Below, in pieces: positions 55,509 through 64,000 of a DNA stretch of 64,000 bases. The translations under genes were made by a program, and so were the position numbers. The notes beneath the pieces were generated by a model that was not told the origin of the DNA, searched no databases, and saw only the letters and a list, made by a program, of their open reading frames with translations. Positions within the stretch are counted from its first letter, which is position 1, and each line of letters starts with the position of its first letter. The stretch comes from Centipeda felix (GTDB lineage Bacteria > Bacillota > Negativicutes > Selenomonadales > Selenomonadaceae), in assembly GCF_900186465.1 (NCBI RefSeq), contig NZ_LT891959.1:310001-374000 (forward strand), given 5' to 3'.

Positions 55509-55554
55509 AGTATAGCGGGAAACAAAGAACCTGTCAAGTATTTTTCTTGACAGG
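55509..55554 (-). promoter_or_regulatory. Promoter of the ylxM-ffh operon with inverted repeat
   Basis: Minus strand TTGACA (55537-55532), 17-bp spacer, TATACT (55514-55509). CCTGTCAAG (55530-55538) and CTTGACAGG (55546-55554) form a perfect 9-bp inverted repeat over the -35. It may be an operator, or the terminator of the upstream PARG gene on the same strand. Confidence 0.65.
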
Positions 55555-55592
55555 CTTCGCTCAATATACTTCCATGAGCCTTTTTGAATGCA

Positions 55593-56993
55593 CTACACCA
55601 AACGCAGATGGGTTCTCTTGGGGGACGAATGGTGGAACGGAATCCATGAAAGTGGTGTAGAAGCCACCGTCTCCCCCTCTATTGTGAGCGATATCGTAAT
55701 CGCAATCAGATCATGCCCTGTCACATCCGTCAAAAGAAATGCATATGCATTTTGGCGGTCGGTGGAAAATGCAAGCAAATTACATTCTTCCAAAAAACTG
55801 ACATAAGCAAACAGGACGCTTAAATCGTCCACCATGCCGCCGTCCGCCATGCCGACACACAAAGCATGAAACGCCTTCACCGGCTTTTGAACAAAAAAGG
55901 TCTTCGTATCGGTTGCTTCATTGACAAGCGGCACGCACTCTAGCTTCATGAAGTCTTCCGTAACAGGAAGATAGAATGCCACAGCCCGATCGCCATCGGT
56001 CTGCTCCCAGATTTCTGCCATAAAGGGAATTCCGTTCTTCGTTGTGCCATAAGAATACCCTTTATTCTCAGGAGAAATGTTTTCCTGTGAAAAGTTGTAT
56101 GTGATGAACGGATGATTTGTTTGATAAAATCCCGGTACTAATGTCACTGTTTCAGATGTATCATTGGTGCATATTGTTCCAACATTCTGAAACACATCTG
56201 CAAATGCGTGAAAATTTTTCTTTTCACCTCTATCAATAATGGCGAATGCTATCGTTCGAAAGTATTTATGATATTCTTCATCCATAAGAATATCATAAAA
56301 ATACTTTGCAACGCTATACGGGTCGTGCCCAAATGCACCGCATCCCCATGCGCCAAGAACGAGTGACGAATATCCATGCGCTGCGGCAACGGCAAACATT
56401 TTCCTTAGCCTCGATTTCATTACACGTGACATCACAGCAGGAGAAACCTCCCGCGCCGCACCGTTGCGGTTCGGCGCAGGAATCGTAATGACAGAAGTCA
56501 GAAATGGCTCATCCAAAAAATCATCATGAAGATCCCGAAAGACGCATACATGGGGTGATAGTATCATGTAGTCGGAAGCACAGGCATTTTTTCGGCGATT
56601 GTTATAGTTATACATCTCGTATGCCGCATCGCTGCCTATGGAGTGATAGAGCGTACTCTCTCTGCACAAACATTCTTCCTGTGCATTTGCACCGTTTCGA
56701 AATCCGCCGCCGGGTACATGTGCATTGGCGAAATTCATTACGAGGACGTTCTCCATTCCCTCGGCACAGGCAAAAGAATCTGCATCCAAGACATAGATAT
56801 CAGGAGTATCTGATATAGAGCAGCCACTTTTTACAACTTCTCCACAACGTCTTGCCTCTTTGGCATCTATGAGAATTGCTGCGCTATAGTCCTCTTTGGG
56901 AAGAAGTATTGTTTTGCCATGCTTTTGATACCTGCCTTGGTGCGTAATCTGTATGGTTTCTTCCGCAATTCGTCTGCGTTCCTGCCGAGACAT
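55593..56993 (-). CDS. TIGR02452-type PARG/macrodomain protein with extra C-terminal domain
   Basis: A 466-residue protein. Residues 1 to about 270 fit microbial poly(ADP-ribose) glycohydrolases of the macrodomain fold. The key loop is GGGFRNGANAQEECLCRES, which fits the PARG signature GGG followed by paired glutamates after Q. Other segments are NFANAHVPGGG, TIPAPNRNG and LGAWGCGAFGHDP. Such enzymes remove ADP-ribose from protein or nucleic acid. About 190 C-terminal residues (from QNVGTICTND) match nothing recognised. It lies 21 bp after the glycosylase-like gene in an AT-rich island. ATG 56993 has GGAGGGG upstream. Its targets are unknown. Confidence 0.85.
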   Translation of the reverse strand: MSRQERRRIAEETIQITHQGRYQKHGKTILLPKEDYSAAILIDAKEARRCGEVVKSGCSISDTPDIYVLDADSFACAEGMENVLVMNFANAHVPGGGFRNGANAQEECLCRESTLYHSIGSDAAYEMYNYNNRRKNACASDYMILSPHVCVFRDLHDDFLDEPFLTSVITIPAPNRNGAAREVSPAVMSRVMKSRLRKMFAVAAAHGYSSLVLGAWGCGAFGHDPYSVAKYFYDILMDEEYHKYFRTIAFAIIDRGEKKNFHAFADVFQNVGTICTNDTSETVTLVPGFYQTNHPFITYNFSQENISPENKGYSYGTTKNGIPFMAEIWEQTDGDRAVAFYLPVTEDFMKLECVPLVNEATDTKTFFVQKPVKAFHALCVGMADGGMVDDLSVLFAYVSFLEECNLLAFSTDRQNAYAFLLTDVTGHDLIAITISLTIEGETVASTPLSWIPFHHSSPKRTHLRLV

Positions 56994-57014
56994 CACCGCC
57001 CCTCCTTTTTCATC

Positions 57015-57764
57015 TCATTGCATGGAGGTCTCCCCGACCCACTTCCAATCTTTAATTTGCTGCTCCAATGGTCGATTCCTTATGCCAAGACTGCCGCAAT
57101 GTGCCAGCGGATAGATCACCCCGCCCCCATATGCAGGATCCGCTTTGATCTGTGAATGTTCTTCGATATATTTCATATAGCCCTTATATGGTATTCTGGA
57201 TCCTTTTACAAGTGCCTTATAAACACATTCAAAGCTCATGCGTCCCAAGCACAAAATATTCTTCGGCTGCAATATGATACATAACTCCCGAAAACGTTCC
57301 CTGTCTTTATTCATGAGCTTCTTCTTCATGCCCCCGCTGCTTTCTTTACGCCGGTAGCCCAAGCAAAAATTCGTAAAGAAAAGTTCATCGTACTGCTGTT
57401 GTGCAATTTCATAACCCAAATGACGAAAGAGCTCAATCAAGTTTTTATCCGTTTGAAACCCACTGTCCATTTTCTTTTCGTCACTGATATACGGTAAGTC
57501 TTTTCCGCTGATAATCTGTCTGATCCTATCTTGAAACGTCTTCGGTGCAGAATGTGGGTTGCCCCAGTCCTGTCCAACCAATAGGTATTTGATTTCCGGT
57601 GTCGTTTCGGCATATCCTCTGCCCTGCCAATAGGTATAAAGATTGATTTCTTTACAAACACCAAACGTCTCATCAAGCGGCATCAGAAAAGAAGATCCAT
57701 CCTGTTCCTGATAGAACTTCCGCGCATCTTTTACGAGATTTCCATAGGCTTCACGTTTGTTCAT
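57015..57764 (-). CDS. Uracil-DNA-glycosylase-like protein
   Basis: A 249-residue cytoplasmic protein. Segments LLVGQDWGNPHS and FFTNFCLGYR, and the later ILCLGRMSFECV and LAHCGSLGIRNRP, follow the layout of the UDG superfamily: GQDPY-type active-site loop, strand, then a histidine loop. The normal GQDPY is GQDWG here, so activity on uracil is not certain. First gene of a two-gene operon with the PARG protein, with its own TTGACA/TACTAT promoter and strong ribosome site GAGGAGGGG. AT-rich codon use differs from the neighbours, which suggests transfer. Confidence 0.75.
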   Translation of the reverse strand: MNKREAYGNLVKDARKFYQEQDGSSFLMPLDETFGVCKEINLYTYWQGRGYAETTPEIKYLLVGQDWGNPHSAPKTFQDRIRQIISGKDLPYISDEKKMDSGFQTDKNLIELFRHLGYEIAQQQYDELFFTNFCLGYRRKESSGGMKKKLMNKDRERFRELCIILQPKNILCLGRMSFECVYKALVKGSRIPYKGYMKYIEEHSQIKADPAYGGGVIYPLAHCGSLGIRNRPLEQQIKDWKWVGETSMQ

Positions 57765-57794
57765 TTCTGCCCCTCCTCATTTCATTCTAACATA

Positions 57795-57823
57795 ATAGTA
57801 TCTACTTCGACAAACAATGTCAA
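57795..57823 (-). promoter_or_regulatory. Promoter of the glycosylase/PARG operon
   Basis: Minus strand TTGACA (57823-57818), 17-bp spacer, TACTAT (57800-57795), 30 bp before the start. Confidence 0.7.
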
Positions 57824-57845
57824 GAATGAAAGTTCCATCAAAAAA

Positions 57846-57876
57846 GGCATGAAGCGGCTTCGTTCCCGTTCATGCC
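57846..57876 (-). terminator. Terminator of the DUF438/hemerythrin gene
   Basis: GGCATGAA (57846-57853) pairs with TTCATGCC (57869-57876), with an inner GCGG/CCCG-like region, and TTTTTT follows on the minus strand. Confidence 0.9.
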
Positions 57877-57917
57877 TAAGATTTCATTATTATATTGTCA
57901 TATCCTTTTGTCGCATT

Positions 57918-59628: not shown

Positions 59629-62202
<2,574 letters not shown>

Positions 62203-62239
62203 AGGTATCCCTCCACTGTTCTTATTTTATGTGTCTATT

Positions 62240-62267
62240 ATTATAACAGATAAAGTCAAAAAGTCAA
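62240..62267 (-). promoter_or_regulatory. Promoter of clpB with direct repeats over the -35
   Basis: Minus strand TTGACT (62267-62262), 16-bp spacer, perfect TATAAT (62245-62240). TTTGACT occurs twice in direct repeat, 8 bases apart, over and next to the -35. These half-sites match CtsR heptads, but CtsR normally needs a 3-base gap, so the regulator is uncertain. Confidence 0.55.
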
Positions 62268-62342
62268 ATATAAATTTTGATTTTTTGACATTTAATGCAA
62301 AAAAATCTGCCGACGTGCGGCAGAGTCCATTTTTTAGATGTT

Positions 62343-62509
62343 TAGGGAAGCACTGATAAATTCGGTACGACCATCTTGACGCATCTTTTTCGCCCGCTTT
62401 TCGTTAGCAAATCCTCCACATAGCTCTTGCTATGCGTCCGGTTTGCTGCCTCAATCGGACAAAAAATCTACGCCAATCTGGCATACCTCATTTTATCAGC
62501 GATTCCCTA
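62343..62509. mobile_element. MITE-like TA-flanked element, full-length copy 2
   Basis: 167 bp, TA at both ends, left GGGAAGCACTGATAAA and right TTTATCAGCGATTCCC. In inverted orientation it matches the copy at 4609-4776 along its whole length. Together with the clpB promoter it accounts for most of the 304-bp gap 62203-62506. Its right TA plus the next base form the TAG stop codon of the glutamine synthetase gene. Confidence 0.75.
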
Positions 62510-64000
62510 GATCATATTCTTCTTGTAGATGTCGTAGAGGCTCTTCAGTTCCTCCATCTTCGCGTACATCTCGAGCTGCAGCGCCGATGCCGTTGCATCA
62601 TCGCCGTCATTCAGTGCCTTGATCAGCAGGGTAAAGAGCGCCTTGTCGTCAATCGTATCCTTTGCGAGGTAGACGCGCAGGTCACGAATTTTGTTCCACA
62701 TATAGGCATCCTGATCCGTCACGAAATCGCTCTTGATCTCCGTCATACGGCGAACGATATCGCGGTTCTCCGGAATGATGCGGCTGATCAGCTCGATCTT
62801 CCAGCGCAGGAGAGCACCGGTACGGAACGAGTCAATGATGCGCGGCGTCAGCGTTCCGCCCGCCGTGATGACCGCGAGCTTCTTCTCGTTGTGCTCAAAG
62901 CCGAGCATGTTCTCCCAGACCGTCGCGGGCGGCTTACCAAAGCGTGCATCGCGCTCCTCCGCCGTATAGTGCTCAAAGACATCCTCCTCGCTCCGATAGG
63001 CGCGGTCTGTCTCGAGGTAGAGCCCCTGCTCACCCGGCTGCTTGGAGAGCTCGGCGAGCAGTTCCTCTGCCGTGCGCCCCTTCGTGTGCAAAACGCCGTC
63101 GAGGATGGCGAGATACGAGGCGGCGAGGACGAAGTACGTATTCGAGTACGGATTCGTCGCACGCAGCTCAAAGCGCGTAGCCAGTGGATTCTTGATATCG
63201 CGGATGAGGCTCACGAGCACCGTGCGGTTACGCGCGGGGATCGCAGGCGTCGCGCCAAAGGACGTAACGATGCAGACCGGCGCCTCAAAGCCCGGCTTCA
63301 GGCGGTTGAATGCGTCATTGGTCGCCGATACGAACGGATTGATGACCTCGTAGTTGCGCAGGAGTCCCATGAGTGCGCCATAGCCGACGGCGCTCATATA
63401 GTGTGCATTCTGGTCGTCTGCTGCAAAGAGGTTGTGGCGTTTGCCGTCCTTCGTGATGGCCGCGAGGCTCAGATGGGTATGCTCGCCATTTCCCGCCAGA
63501 CCGATGAGCGGCTTTGCCTTGAAGTTCACCTCAAGCCCGTAGAGACGGAAGATCTCGCGGACAAAGGTACGGATGAAGAGCTCGTTGTCCGCCGCCTGTA
63601 CCGCATCGTCATATTTCCAGTCGATCTCGATCTGCTCGCAGACATGGGTCATGCGGCCGGTATCGTCGATCTGCGCCTTCACGCCGCCGACCTCTTTATG
63701 CCCCATCTCCATGTGGAACCCATATTTTTCGAGCTGGATCAGGCACTCCTCAAGCGCCGAGCGCACGGCACCGTGCGTCCGCTCCCAATACTGCTCGTTC
63801 ATCACCTGCGACGCCGACATCTCCTCGATCGAGGCATTGTCGTCGAGCGGCGTCTTGACCCAGAACTCAAGCTCCGTCGCGGAGGTGAAAACGATATCCT
63901 CGATGTCCGCACCGTTCAGGCTCGGTGCTGCGGAGATTTCCGGATTCTCATGGAAGAACTTCAGCAGTTCCTTCTTTACATAGACAAGCGTATCCGTGAG
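62507..64000 (-). CDS. glnA: Glutamine synthetase, 5' end beyond window
   Basis: About 497 C-terminal residues are open from the right edge. ATELEFWVKTP and MEMGHKEVGGVKAQ fit the conserved glutamate/ammonia-binding region, AGNGEHTHLSLA the ATP-binding histidine region, and PARNRTVLVSL plus RFELRATNPYSNTYF the substrate and catalytic segments. It condenses glutamate and ammonia. The long C-terminal extension (past about residue 380 of what is seen) is more than in GlnA of the short type, so a larger bacterial type is likely. The stop lies in the MITE-like element. Confidence 0.9.
   Translation of the reverse strand, partial: LTDTLVYVKKELLKFFHENPEISAAPSLNGADIEDIVFTSATELEFWVKTPLDDNASIEEMSASQVMNEQYWERTHGAVRSALEECLIQLEKYGFHMEMGHKEVGGVKAQIDDTGRMTHVCEQIEIDWKYDDAVQAADNELFIRTFVREIFRLYGLEVNFKAKPLIGLAGNGEHTHLSLAAITKDGKRHNLFAADDQNAHYMSAVGYGALMGLLRNYEVINPFVSATNDAFNRLKPGFEAPVCIVTSFGATPAIPARNRTVLVSLIRDIKNPLATRFELRATNPYSNTYFVLAASYLAILDGVLHTKGRTAEELLAELSKQPGEQGLYLETDRAYRSEEDVFEHYTAEERDARFGKPPATVWENMLGFEHNEKKLAVITAGGTLTPRIIDSFRTGALLRWKIELISRIIPENRDIVRRMTEIKSDFVTDQDAYMWNKIRDLRVYLAKDTIDDKALFTLLIKALNDGDDATASALQLEMYAKMEELKSLYDIYKKNMI

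What the first reader, a model, noticed from the sequence alone, without database searches (positions are those of the whole stretch)
55593..57764. AT-rich two-gene unit: uracil-glycosylase-like protein plus PARG macrodomain protein
The genes are 21 bp apart with their own promoter, in DNA much poorer in GC than its surroundings (19/60 and 22/60 GC in rows 56221 and 57181, versus 37/60 in row 57961). PARG removes ADP-ribose and UDG-type folds excise bases. Side by side they could reverse or sense nucleic-acid or protein ADP-ribosylation, or act in phage defence or as an antitoxin. This is the best candidate here for an undescribed system.
Basis: partly seen in the sequence, partly recalled or inferred. 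Interest (0 to 1): 0.7.

Follow-up and report, generated by a model that had tools for sequence, protein, structure and literature searches.

The report
ADP-ribose removal pair with glycosylase fold
Two neighbouring genes in an oral Selenomonas, one an enzyme that strips ADP-ribose from molecules and one with the fold of a DNA-base-removing enzyme, form a small, horizontally spread cassette whose relatives in other genera are repeatedly joined to other ADP-ribose-stripping enzymes, so they probably work together to undo a hostile chemical tag.

Summary
In detail: a minus-strand two-gene unit, 21 bp apart, 45% GC in a 57% GC window, with a promoter-like site and a terminator-like hairpin at each end. 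Gene 2 is a microbial-type PARG (TIGR02452, 1e-57; modelled fold Z 34) with an unassigned C-terminal domain. Gene 1 matches no family model itself but models as a uracil-DNA-glycosylase (UDG) fold (Z 14), and a homologue passes Pfam UDG. The unit sits at one chromosomal site in 5 Selenomonas species, is absent there in others, and between the window strain and the others its synonymous divergence is about a fifth of its neighbours': a spread cassette. The pairing is not chance. Of 23 loci encoding the UDG-like protein, 14 have a PARG, ARH (ADP_ribosyl_GH) or Macro domain within 2.3 kb, some in the same polypeptide, in two domain orders; five have a nucleoside deoxyribosyltransferase instead. 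Relatives have WYL regulators and SseB domains, as in ADP-ribosylglycohydrolase systems predicted to counter foreign ADP-ribosylation (Iyer et al. 2022), whose text names no UDG fold. DarT and PF03496 transferases are absent from this genome. Best reading: a minimal, mobile variant of such a reversal system; substrate unknown.

The parts
57015..57764 (-). UDG-fold protein (UDGL), 249 aa; invariant D66, N132 and H222 at what I take to be the three classical UDG motifs
   Evidence: ORF; modelled fold Z 14.1 to family 4 UDG 4zby; 18-row alignment A4; homologue passes Pfam UDG. The motif roles are recalled
55593..56993 (-). microbial-type PARG with C-terminal extension, 466 aa
   Evidence: TIGR02452 1.1e-57 and PF10021 5.4e-31, both over cut-off; solved-structure match 2.5e-41 to T. 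curvata PARG
56181..56993 (-). PARG catalytic macrodomain (about residues 1-271); PGGG and QEE (residues 105-107) motifs
   Evidence: modelled fold Z 34.0, rmsd 1.9 over 261 residues to 3sih; alignment A3
55596..56126 (-). C-terminal domain (CTD, about residues 290-466), no family match; also found as a free-standing gene beside another UDG gene (L031)
57795..57823 (-). promoter-like site TTGACA-17-TACTAT before UDGL
   Evidence: consensus match only
57836..57885 (-). terminator-like hairpin plus T run between the upstream gene and the unit's promoter
   Evidence: RNA fold -18.9 kcal/mol, z -4.5
55528..55556 (-). terminator-like hairpin after PARG; also present at the empty site in G010
   Evidence: z -5.7
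55559..57915 (.). extent of the cassette: absent at this site in the Selenomonas genome G010, where the upstream gene (labelled DNR here) runs almost straight into the hairpin

Best explanation
The unit is a minimal, horizontally spread two-enzyme module that reverses ADP-ribosylation imposed from outside (phage- or competitor-encoded transferases), most likely on nucleic acids. Shown: a PARG with its catalytic motif kept; a UDG-fold partner with three motif residues invariant; a separate transcription unit as far as sequence can tell; spread between Selenomonas species at one site; purifying selection; recurrent coupling of the UDG-like family to PARG, ARH and Macro domains and to WYL regulators in relatives; no DarT or PF03496 transferase in the genome. 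Inferred: PARG hydrolyses O-linked ADP-ribose (ribose 2'-OH, phosphate ends), as two other bacterial PARGs do; the UDG-fold protein binds or excises a damaged or modified base or nucleoside that a hydrolase alone cannot restore; the target is foreign-modified DNA or RNA. Probability that the pair works in ADP-ribosylation reversal or sensing at all: about 0.6; that the purpose is to counter foreign nucleic-acid ADP-ribosylation: about 0.4.
For: PARG assignment, motif and fold. UDG fold and conserved D/N/H. Pair at the same site in four further species. Window strain against the others: dS 0.15-0.21 for the two genes, 0.79-1.44 for the flanking genes; dN/dS 0.12-0.22. Of 23 UDGL loci 14 have PARG, ARH or Macro within 2.3 kb, several fused; background ARH density is 99 matches, fragments included, in 101 genomes. 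A second UDG-superfamily gene, found in 2 of 151 sampled family genomes, lies beside a CTD gene in both. WYL regulators near such clusters. [quoted passage not shown] coli from RhsP2 (abstract and passages of PMC11833690). ARG/WYL/SseB neighbourhoods predicted as counter-ADP-ribosylation systems (section 3.8 of PMC9503650).
Against: No activity shown for either protein. Five UDGL loci (four genomes, one genus) pair with a nucleoside deoxyribosyltransferase instead, and the HTH-fused homologue in G003 has no ADP-ribosylhydrolase nearby. G011 keeps PARG without UDGL, S. massiliensis has lost the CTD, S. noxia has an in-frame stop in the CTD, and G012 holds only remnants, so the parts are dispensable. 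Among the strains other than the window's the contrast in dS is smaller (infelix-massiliensis: PARG 0.19, YlxM 0.22, DNR 0.40). The window has no WYL, ARH, Macro, SseB, PHP or DUF1643 relative by tblastn. One related PARG (G529) is fused to an ART domain, against the 'no co-encoded transferase' logic. Two studies found no sign that base excision repairs DarT lesions in E. coli (passages of PMC7003065 and PMC13368585). UDGL was found only in one bacterial family.
Confidence: 0.42

Rival explanations
1. Two-armed phage defence: UDGL excises a modified base from phage DNA, as Brig1 does, while PARG cancels phage-encoded ADP-ribosyltransferases. The genes share a purpose but not a substrate.
For: UDGL's best structural match, the S. 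tokodaii family 4 UDG (4zby, Z 14.1), is also the best match reported for Brig1 (passages of PMC11078745). The cassette is patchy and easily lost. An HTH-fused version exists.
Against: UDGL recurs with several kinds of ADP-ribosylhydrolase, which points to a shared substrate rather than only a shared enemy. No PADLOC match of weight, though that library is from 2023.
Confidence: 0.2
2. Metabolic housekeeping: the cluster cleans up free ADP-ribose, NAD breakdown products or damaged nucleosides; UDGL acts as a nucleoside or nucleotide N-glycosidase rather than on DNA.
For: In one genus the partner is a nucleoside 2-deoxyribosyltransferase (PF05014), in three of five loci with an endonuclease/exonuclease/phosphatase-family gene next to it; PHP and HD genes lie in related clusters.
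Against: Patchy presence, horizontal spread and repeated decay are unlike housekeeping.
Confidence: 0.2
3. Passenger genes: an AT-rich insert whose two genes are neighbours by chance and unrelated in function.
For: AT-rich insert at a site that is empty in seven of 14 Selenomonas; UDGL absent while PARG stays in G011.
Against: Conserved order in five species under purifying selection and recurrent coupling of the UDGL family to ADP-ribosylhydrolases in other genera, including fusions. With an assumed 1% chance per lineage, 3 of 5 lineages gives about 1e-5 (a rough figure).
Confidence: 0.06
4. Antitoxin or immunity half of a toxin-antitoxin pair of the DarTG kind.
For: Macrodomain enzymes serve as antitoxins in DarTG (recalled); one related PARG is fused to an ART domain.
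Against: No DarT in the own genome; found in 1 of 14 Selenomonas (G002), which lacks the pair; PF03496 in 0 of 14 Selenomonas. Other ART families were not searched.
Confidence: 0.05

Closest known systems
ARG-centred counter-ADP-ribosylation systems (Iyer et al. 2022, PMC9503650; section 3.8 read in full, passages elsewhere)
   Same: ADP-ribose-removing core, WYL-domain regulators, SseB domains, extra Macro genes, HD-type phosphohydrolase genes, accretion and loss of parts; relatives of this unit in the same bacterial family show these between them. I take the paper's ARG to be the ADP_ribosyl_GH (ARH) family.
   Different: The window unit has PARG instead of ARG, a UDG-fold partner and a CTD; no regulator or phosphatase. 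Words beginning UDG, glycosylase, PARG, DUF1643 or Negativicutes do not occur in the paper's main text; its supplements were not read.
Bacterial PARGs SCO0909 and DRB0099 (Lu et al. 2025, PMC11833690; abstract and passages read)
   Same: Same PARG family; those enzymes reverse 2'-OH and phosphate-end RNA ADP-ribosylation and protect E. coli from RhsP2.
   Different: The solved D. radiodurans PARG chain is about 250 aa and only the catalytic part aligns; SCO0909 was not compared. The DRB0099 operon carries a ligase and a kinase/phosphatase, no UDG-fold gene, in the passages read.
NADAR-Nudix-PARG operons
   Same: PARG beside another ADP-ribose-related enzyme; three such loci seen here in other families of the phylum (NADAR and Nudix named by eye).
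   Different: No UDGL by tblastn and no UDG-like gene by eye within about 1.5 kb of the nine TIGR02452 loci examined outside the family.
Brig1, anti-phage DNA glycosylase (PMC11078745; passages read)
   Same: UDG-fold protein outside ordinary repair; same best structural relative.
   Different: No ADP-ribosylhydrolase partner in the passages read; the substrate of UDGL is unknown.
DarTG (PMC7003065; passages read)
   Same: Macrodomain enzyme that undoes ADP-ribosylation.
   Different: No DarT here; DarG is not a PARG-type macrodomain (recalled).

Membership tests
Microbial-type PARG (TIGR02452 / PF10021) | sequence score over curated cut-off | tested here: met
   195.6 bits against 50; 108.4 against 23.5
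Microbial-type PARG (TIGR02452 / PF10021) | GGG...QEE catalytic motif | tested here: met
   PGGGFRNGANAQEE aligned with the T. curvata enzyme; the role of the motif is recalled
Microbial-type PARG (TIGR02452 / PF10021) | hydrolysis of ADP-ribose linkages | not testable with these tools
   needs purified protein
UDG superfamily | UDG fold | tested here: met
   AlphaFold2 model, mean pLDDT 76.8 (residues 25-40 and 140-143 under 50); Z 14.1, 3.2 A over 175 residues to 4zby
UDG superfamily | passes PF03167 | tested here: inconclusive
   window protein: no match at E 1; UDG domain of homologue L027, in the same alignment: 30.7 bits against 24.3; other homologues under the cut-off or unmatched
UDG superfamily | catalytic Asp, Asn and His in three motifs | tested here: met
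   D66, N132, H222 invariant in 18 of 18 rows of A4; motif roles recalled, superposition not inspected
UDG superfamily | base excision activity | not testable with these tools
   needs purified protein
ARG-centred counter-ADP-ribosylation system | ARG/ARH domain at the core | tested here: not met
   no ARH relative in the window; met in UDGL loci of G518, G529, G530, G540, G545, G556, G564, G593
ARG-centred counter-ADP-ribosylation system | WYL or Nudix regulator (in over 42% of the published cases) | tested here: not met
   no relative of the clusters' WYL proteins in the window (Nudix not tested); present near UDGL in G530, G545, G593 and near CTD genes in G490, G021
ARG-centred counter-ADP-ribosylation system | no coupled transferase | tested here: inconclusive
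   PF14487 and PF03496 absent from the own genome, but other ART families and sirtuins were not searched, and one relative (G529) has a fused ART domain
DarTG-type toxin-antitoxin | DarT partner | tested here: not met
   0 DarT in own genome
Brig1-type anti-phage glycosylase | excises a hypermodified phage base | not testable with these tools
   only the fold was compared

The most novel reading that the evidence does not exclude
The UDG-fold protein is a dedicated glycosylase (or a trapping protein) for ADP-ribosylated nucleobases in DNA or RNA, working beside ADP-ribosylhydrolases: one arm strips ADP-ribose where it can, the other cuts out the base where it cannot. That would be a base-excision branch of ADP-ribosylation reversal, with several hydrolase families swapped in across genera.
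Probability: 0.17. Interest if true: 0.85.

Novelty: new variant of a known kind. Interest (0 to 1): 0.6.

Why it matters
Nucleic-acid ADP-ribosylation by toxins is known and hydrolases that reverse it are being found, but I met no dedicated base-excision partner in the searches made (of, 15 of 59 papers were listed), and one study that looked for base-excision repair of DarT lesions in E. coli found no evidence for it, though could not exclude it. A UDG-fold family that keeps turning up with PARG, ARH and Macro domains, also in one polypeptide, is a direct, testable lead, and the two-gene Selenomonas cassette is its smallest form seen here.

Tried and rejected
Chance neighbours: rejected by conserved order and by recurrent coupling elsewhere. 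DarT/antitoxin link: not found. Phage or plasmid carriage: UDGL and the UDG domain of the L027 homologue gave no match in phages or plasmids, the CTD of L031 none in plasmids, and none of the candidate stretches in viral contigs (148 and 73) encoded a relative of UDGL or CTD. PARG itself matches 20 of 50,697 phage records (Bacillus phage G, Lak phages of Prevotella and others, 30-36% identity) and 27 of 72,556 plasmid records; the best place never covers 80% of the query and the listed places stop at about residue 283 or before, so without the CTD. Defence-database match: only a chance-level PD-Lambda-5 score of 10.8 bits. UDGL by sequence against solved structures: nothing with the single protein; with the profile two chance-level rows, an ABC transporter ATPase (0.06) and the UDG 4zbx (0.42). 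DUF1643, which joins the same clusters (fused to ARH and next to UDGL in G593), looks UDG-like to me by motif order, but thin-profile comparisons did not support kinship with UDGL or with the PF03167 gene, so it is not claimed; the same comparison also failed for UDGL against the PF03167 gene, so that test is weak. The CTD: no Pfam match in the window protein, and for three relatives only one chance-level row; its fold could not be tested because the PARG domain filled the structure lists. I suspect a substrate-binding domain but claim nothing. The macro-like N-terminus of L074 scored only 0.06 and was not counted. Left out: L010 from the CTD alignment (in-frame stop), L094 from A4 (stop in the range given), L031 from the PARG tree (CTD only), and the contig-end row from the partner count. 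That tree leaves the place of the Selenomonas clade unresolved. The PARG tree groups the PARGs of these clusters with support 81/79, but the long L061 row of another family falls among them.
Full report
What is there. The window is from Selenomonas (family Selenomonadaceae; named relatives). On the - strand lie UDGL (57764-57015, 249 aa) and, 21 bp on, a PARG (56993-55593, 466 aa). A 10-of-12 promoter-like site precedes UDGL, a terminator-like hairpin separates it from the upstream gene, and another follows PARG. The scans are weak alone (8 promoter-like sites against 4.3 expected, 2 terminator-like against 2.2).

What the proteins are. PARG passes TIGR02452 and PF10021, keeps the PGGG and QEE motifs, and its model matches T. 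curvata PARG at Z 34.0 (rmsd 1.9 over 261 residues). Residues from about 290 on form a domain (CTD) with no family match and a partly low-confidence model. UDGL matches nothing in Pfam, NCBIfam or PADLOC at E 1 or in the solved structures by sequence (two chance-level PHROG rows; two chance-level rows for its profile). Its 18-row model (pLDDT 76.8, pTM 0.83) matches UDGs: 4zby at Z 14.1, 3.2 A over 175 residues, with UdgX, SMUG1 and TDG behind. A homologue fused to a helix-turn-helix domain passes Pfam UDG. D66, N132 and H222 are invariant in 18 of 18 rows; that these are the classical UDG motif residues is recalled.

A cassette. DNR is my label for the upstream ORF 59363-57918; YlxM, Ffh and ClpB are names by eye. 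The order DNR-UDGL-PARG-YlxM-Ffh is found in the window and in S. noxia, S. infelix, Selenomonas sp. FOBRC6 and S. massiliensis. YlxM was found in 14 of 14 Selenomonas genomes: six have PARG beside it (five of them with UDGL, G011 without), seven have DNR beside it and neither gene (the empty site), and G006 shows neither PARG nor DNR in the stretch read. In G010, whose DNR is 99.6% identical to the window's over the part compared, the stretch 55559-57915 is absent. Between the window and the other strains dS is 0.15-0.21 for UDGL and PARG but 0.79-1.44 for DNR, YlxM and Ffh, with dN/dS 0.12-0.22 for the two genes. Among the other strains the contrast is smaller: 0.07-0.22 for the two genes against 0.22-0.91 for the flanks, the closest case being infelix-massiliensis (PARG 0.19, YlxM 0.22, Ffh 0.34, DNR 0.40); dN/dS reaches 0.42 there. 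So the unit has moved between lineages since the window strain's split, and has been under purifying selection. It also decays: S. massiliensis lacks the CTD, S. noxia has an in-frame stop in it, and G012 has only fragments of UDGL and CTD, at another place.

The family. UDGL was found in 21 of 189 genomes of the family and, in a phylum sample, in 2 of 398, both of this family. I looked at the surroundings of all 23 UDGL loci (22 plus the window). Fourteen have an ADP-ribosylhydrolase domain within 2.3 kb: PARG in five Selenomonas; ARH (ADP_ribosyl_GH), with or without Macro or PARG, in G518, G529 (two loci), G530, G540, G545, G556, G564 and G593. (At G529's first locus the near ARH is a short piece that Pfam does not recognise; its PARG lies 2.2 kb away.) PARG and Macro share a fold; ARH is a separate one (recalled). 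In G530 and G545 one polypeptide reads UDGL-ARH (Pfam E 6e-37 and 4e-37 for ARH); in G540, G556, G564 and the second G529 locus it reads ARH-UDGL: two domain orders. In G530 a WYL regulator, then (after three other ORFs) UDGL-ARH-SseB, ARH and PARG lie on one strand; that PARG is 55% identical to the window's. Five loci (G033, G487, G488, G493 twice) have a nucleoside deoxyribosyltransferase instead, fused in G487 and G488. The remaining four are G003 (nothing found), G012 (CTD fragment), and G030 and G522 (contig ends). ARH gave 99 matches, fragments included, in 62 of 101 sampled family genomes, so adjacency is not expected by chance; Macro and PARG densities were not measured. With an assumed 1% per lineage, 3 of 5 lineages gives about 1e-5, a rough figure because the lineages are my grouping and the UDGL tree is poorly resolved.

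The CTD tells the same story. It was found in 10 of 189 family genomes and only in the own genome in a phylum sample of 398. Seven of the ten have a UDG-superfamily gene or its remnant beside it: UDGL in four, a remnant in G012, and in G021 and G490 a different gene that passes Pfam UDG. That gene was found in 2 of 151 sampled family genomes, those two. In G021 the CTD is a free-standing gene followed by the UDG gene and an HD gene; in G490 the UDG gene lies on the other strand, beyond one small ORF, from a row of PARG-CTD, Macro, PARG-CTD and PHP genes, with a WYL gene behind. G011 lacks UDGL; G494 has DUF1643 there; G499 ends at the contig edge. In the phylum TIGR02452 was found in 10 of 249 genomes counting the own; the other nine loci have neighbours such as NADAR, Nudix and a fused HD domain (by eye), no UDGL by tblastn and no UDG-like gene that I could see within about 1.5 kb.

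Mechanism. Bacterial PARGs of this family reverse 2'-OH and phosphate-end ADP-ribosylation of RNA and protected E. coli from RhsP2 (abstract and passages, PMC11833690). ADP-ribosylglycohydrolase clusters with WYL regulators, SseB domains, HD phosphatases and Macro genes have been proposed to undo viral ADP-ribosylation (section 3.8 of PMC9503650, read in full). Relatives of this unit have such parts between them; the window has none of their relatives besides PARG, CTD and UDGL. Neither DarT nor a PF03496 transferase is in the own genome, which fits reversal of foreign modification, but other transferase families were not searched and one relative (G529) has an ART domain fused to its PARG. 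What UDGL does is inferred: a UDG fold with its motif residues kept suggests handling of a base or nucleoside. The Brig1 glycosylase shows that such folds can serve defence (passages of PMC11078745). Against a base-excision role, E. coli mutants lacking Fpg and Nei or the AP endonucleases were not more sensitive to DarT, although the authors could not exclude the pathway (passages of PMC7003065), and loss of xthA did not change editing or viability with a DarT2 editor (passages of PMC13368585).

Novelty. Searches for uracil-DNA glycosylase with macrodomain, NADAR, PARG, ADP-ribosylglycohydrolase or WYL terms, for TIGR02452 and for DUF1643 listed no paper that from its title or the shown start of its abstract describes this pairing; only the papers cited here were opened, no supplements were read, and the library lacks most subscription journals. 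I therefore call it a new variant of a known, predicted kind. The weakest link is function: nothing here shows activity.

Noticed in passing
L085:11381-12652 (-), genome G529: A PARG (PF10021 6e-32) fused to an ADP-ribosyltransferase domain (PF03496 1.7e-9, over cut-off) in the same cluster as UDGL and ARH: writer and eraser in one polypeptide. The catalytic Glu of the transferase looked degenerate by eye.
   Followed up: partly
L113, L115, L116, L117, L119, L120, L096: A recurrent Selenomonadaceae module: WYL regulator, then ADP-ribosylglycohydrolase fused or next to DUF1643 (L119 shows no WYL on its short contig).
   Followed up: partly
L026, L092, L093, L094, L095: UDGL next to or fused behind a nucleoside 2-deoxyribosyltransferase (PF05014), in three of the five loci followed by an endonuclease/exonuclease/phosphatase-family gene.
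   Followed up: partly
L111:8060-8900 (own genome, contig C14): The window's own genome holds an ADP-ribosylglycohydrolase split into two pieces in different frames, probably a broken gene; no UDGL beside it.
   Followed up: partly
G002:C1:1864194-1864751 (L123): The only DarT found in 14 Selenomonas genomes; that genome lacks the UDGL/PARG unit. Its neighbours were not read.
   Followed up: no
L028:7782-8403, genome G012: Fragments of UDGL and of the PARG C-terminal domain directly joined, at a chromosomal place other than the ylxM site: a decayed second insertion place of the cassette.
   Followed up: partly
phage records H1-H20: Very large phages (Bacillus phage G, Lak phages) encode PARG relatives of 30-36% identity without the C-terminal domain.
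   Followed up: no
window 62000-62750: A second GC dip (about 45%) at the upstream end of the clpB-like gene.
   Followed up: no
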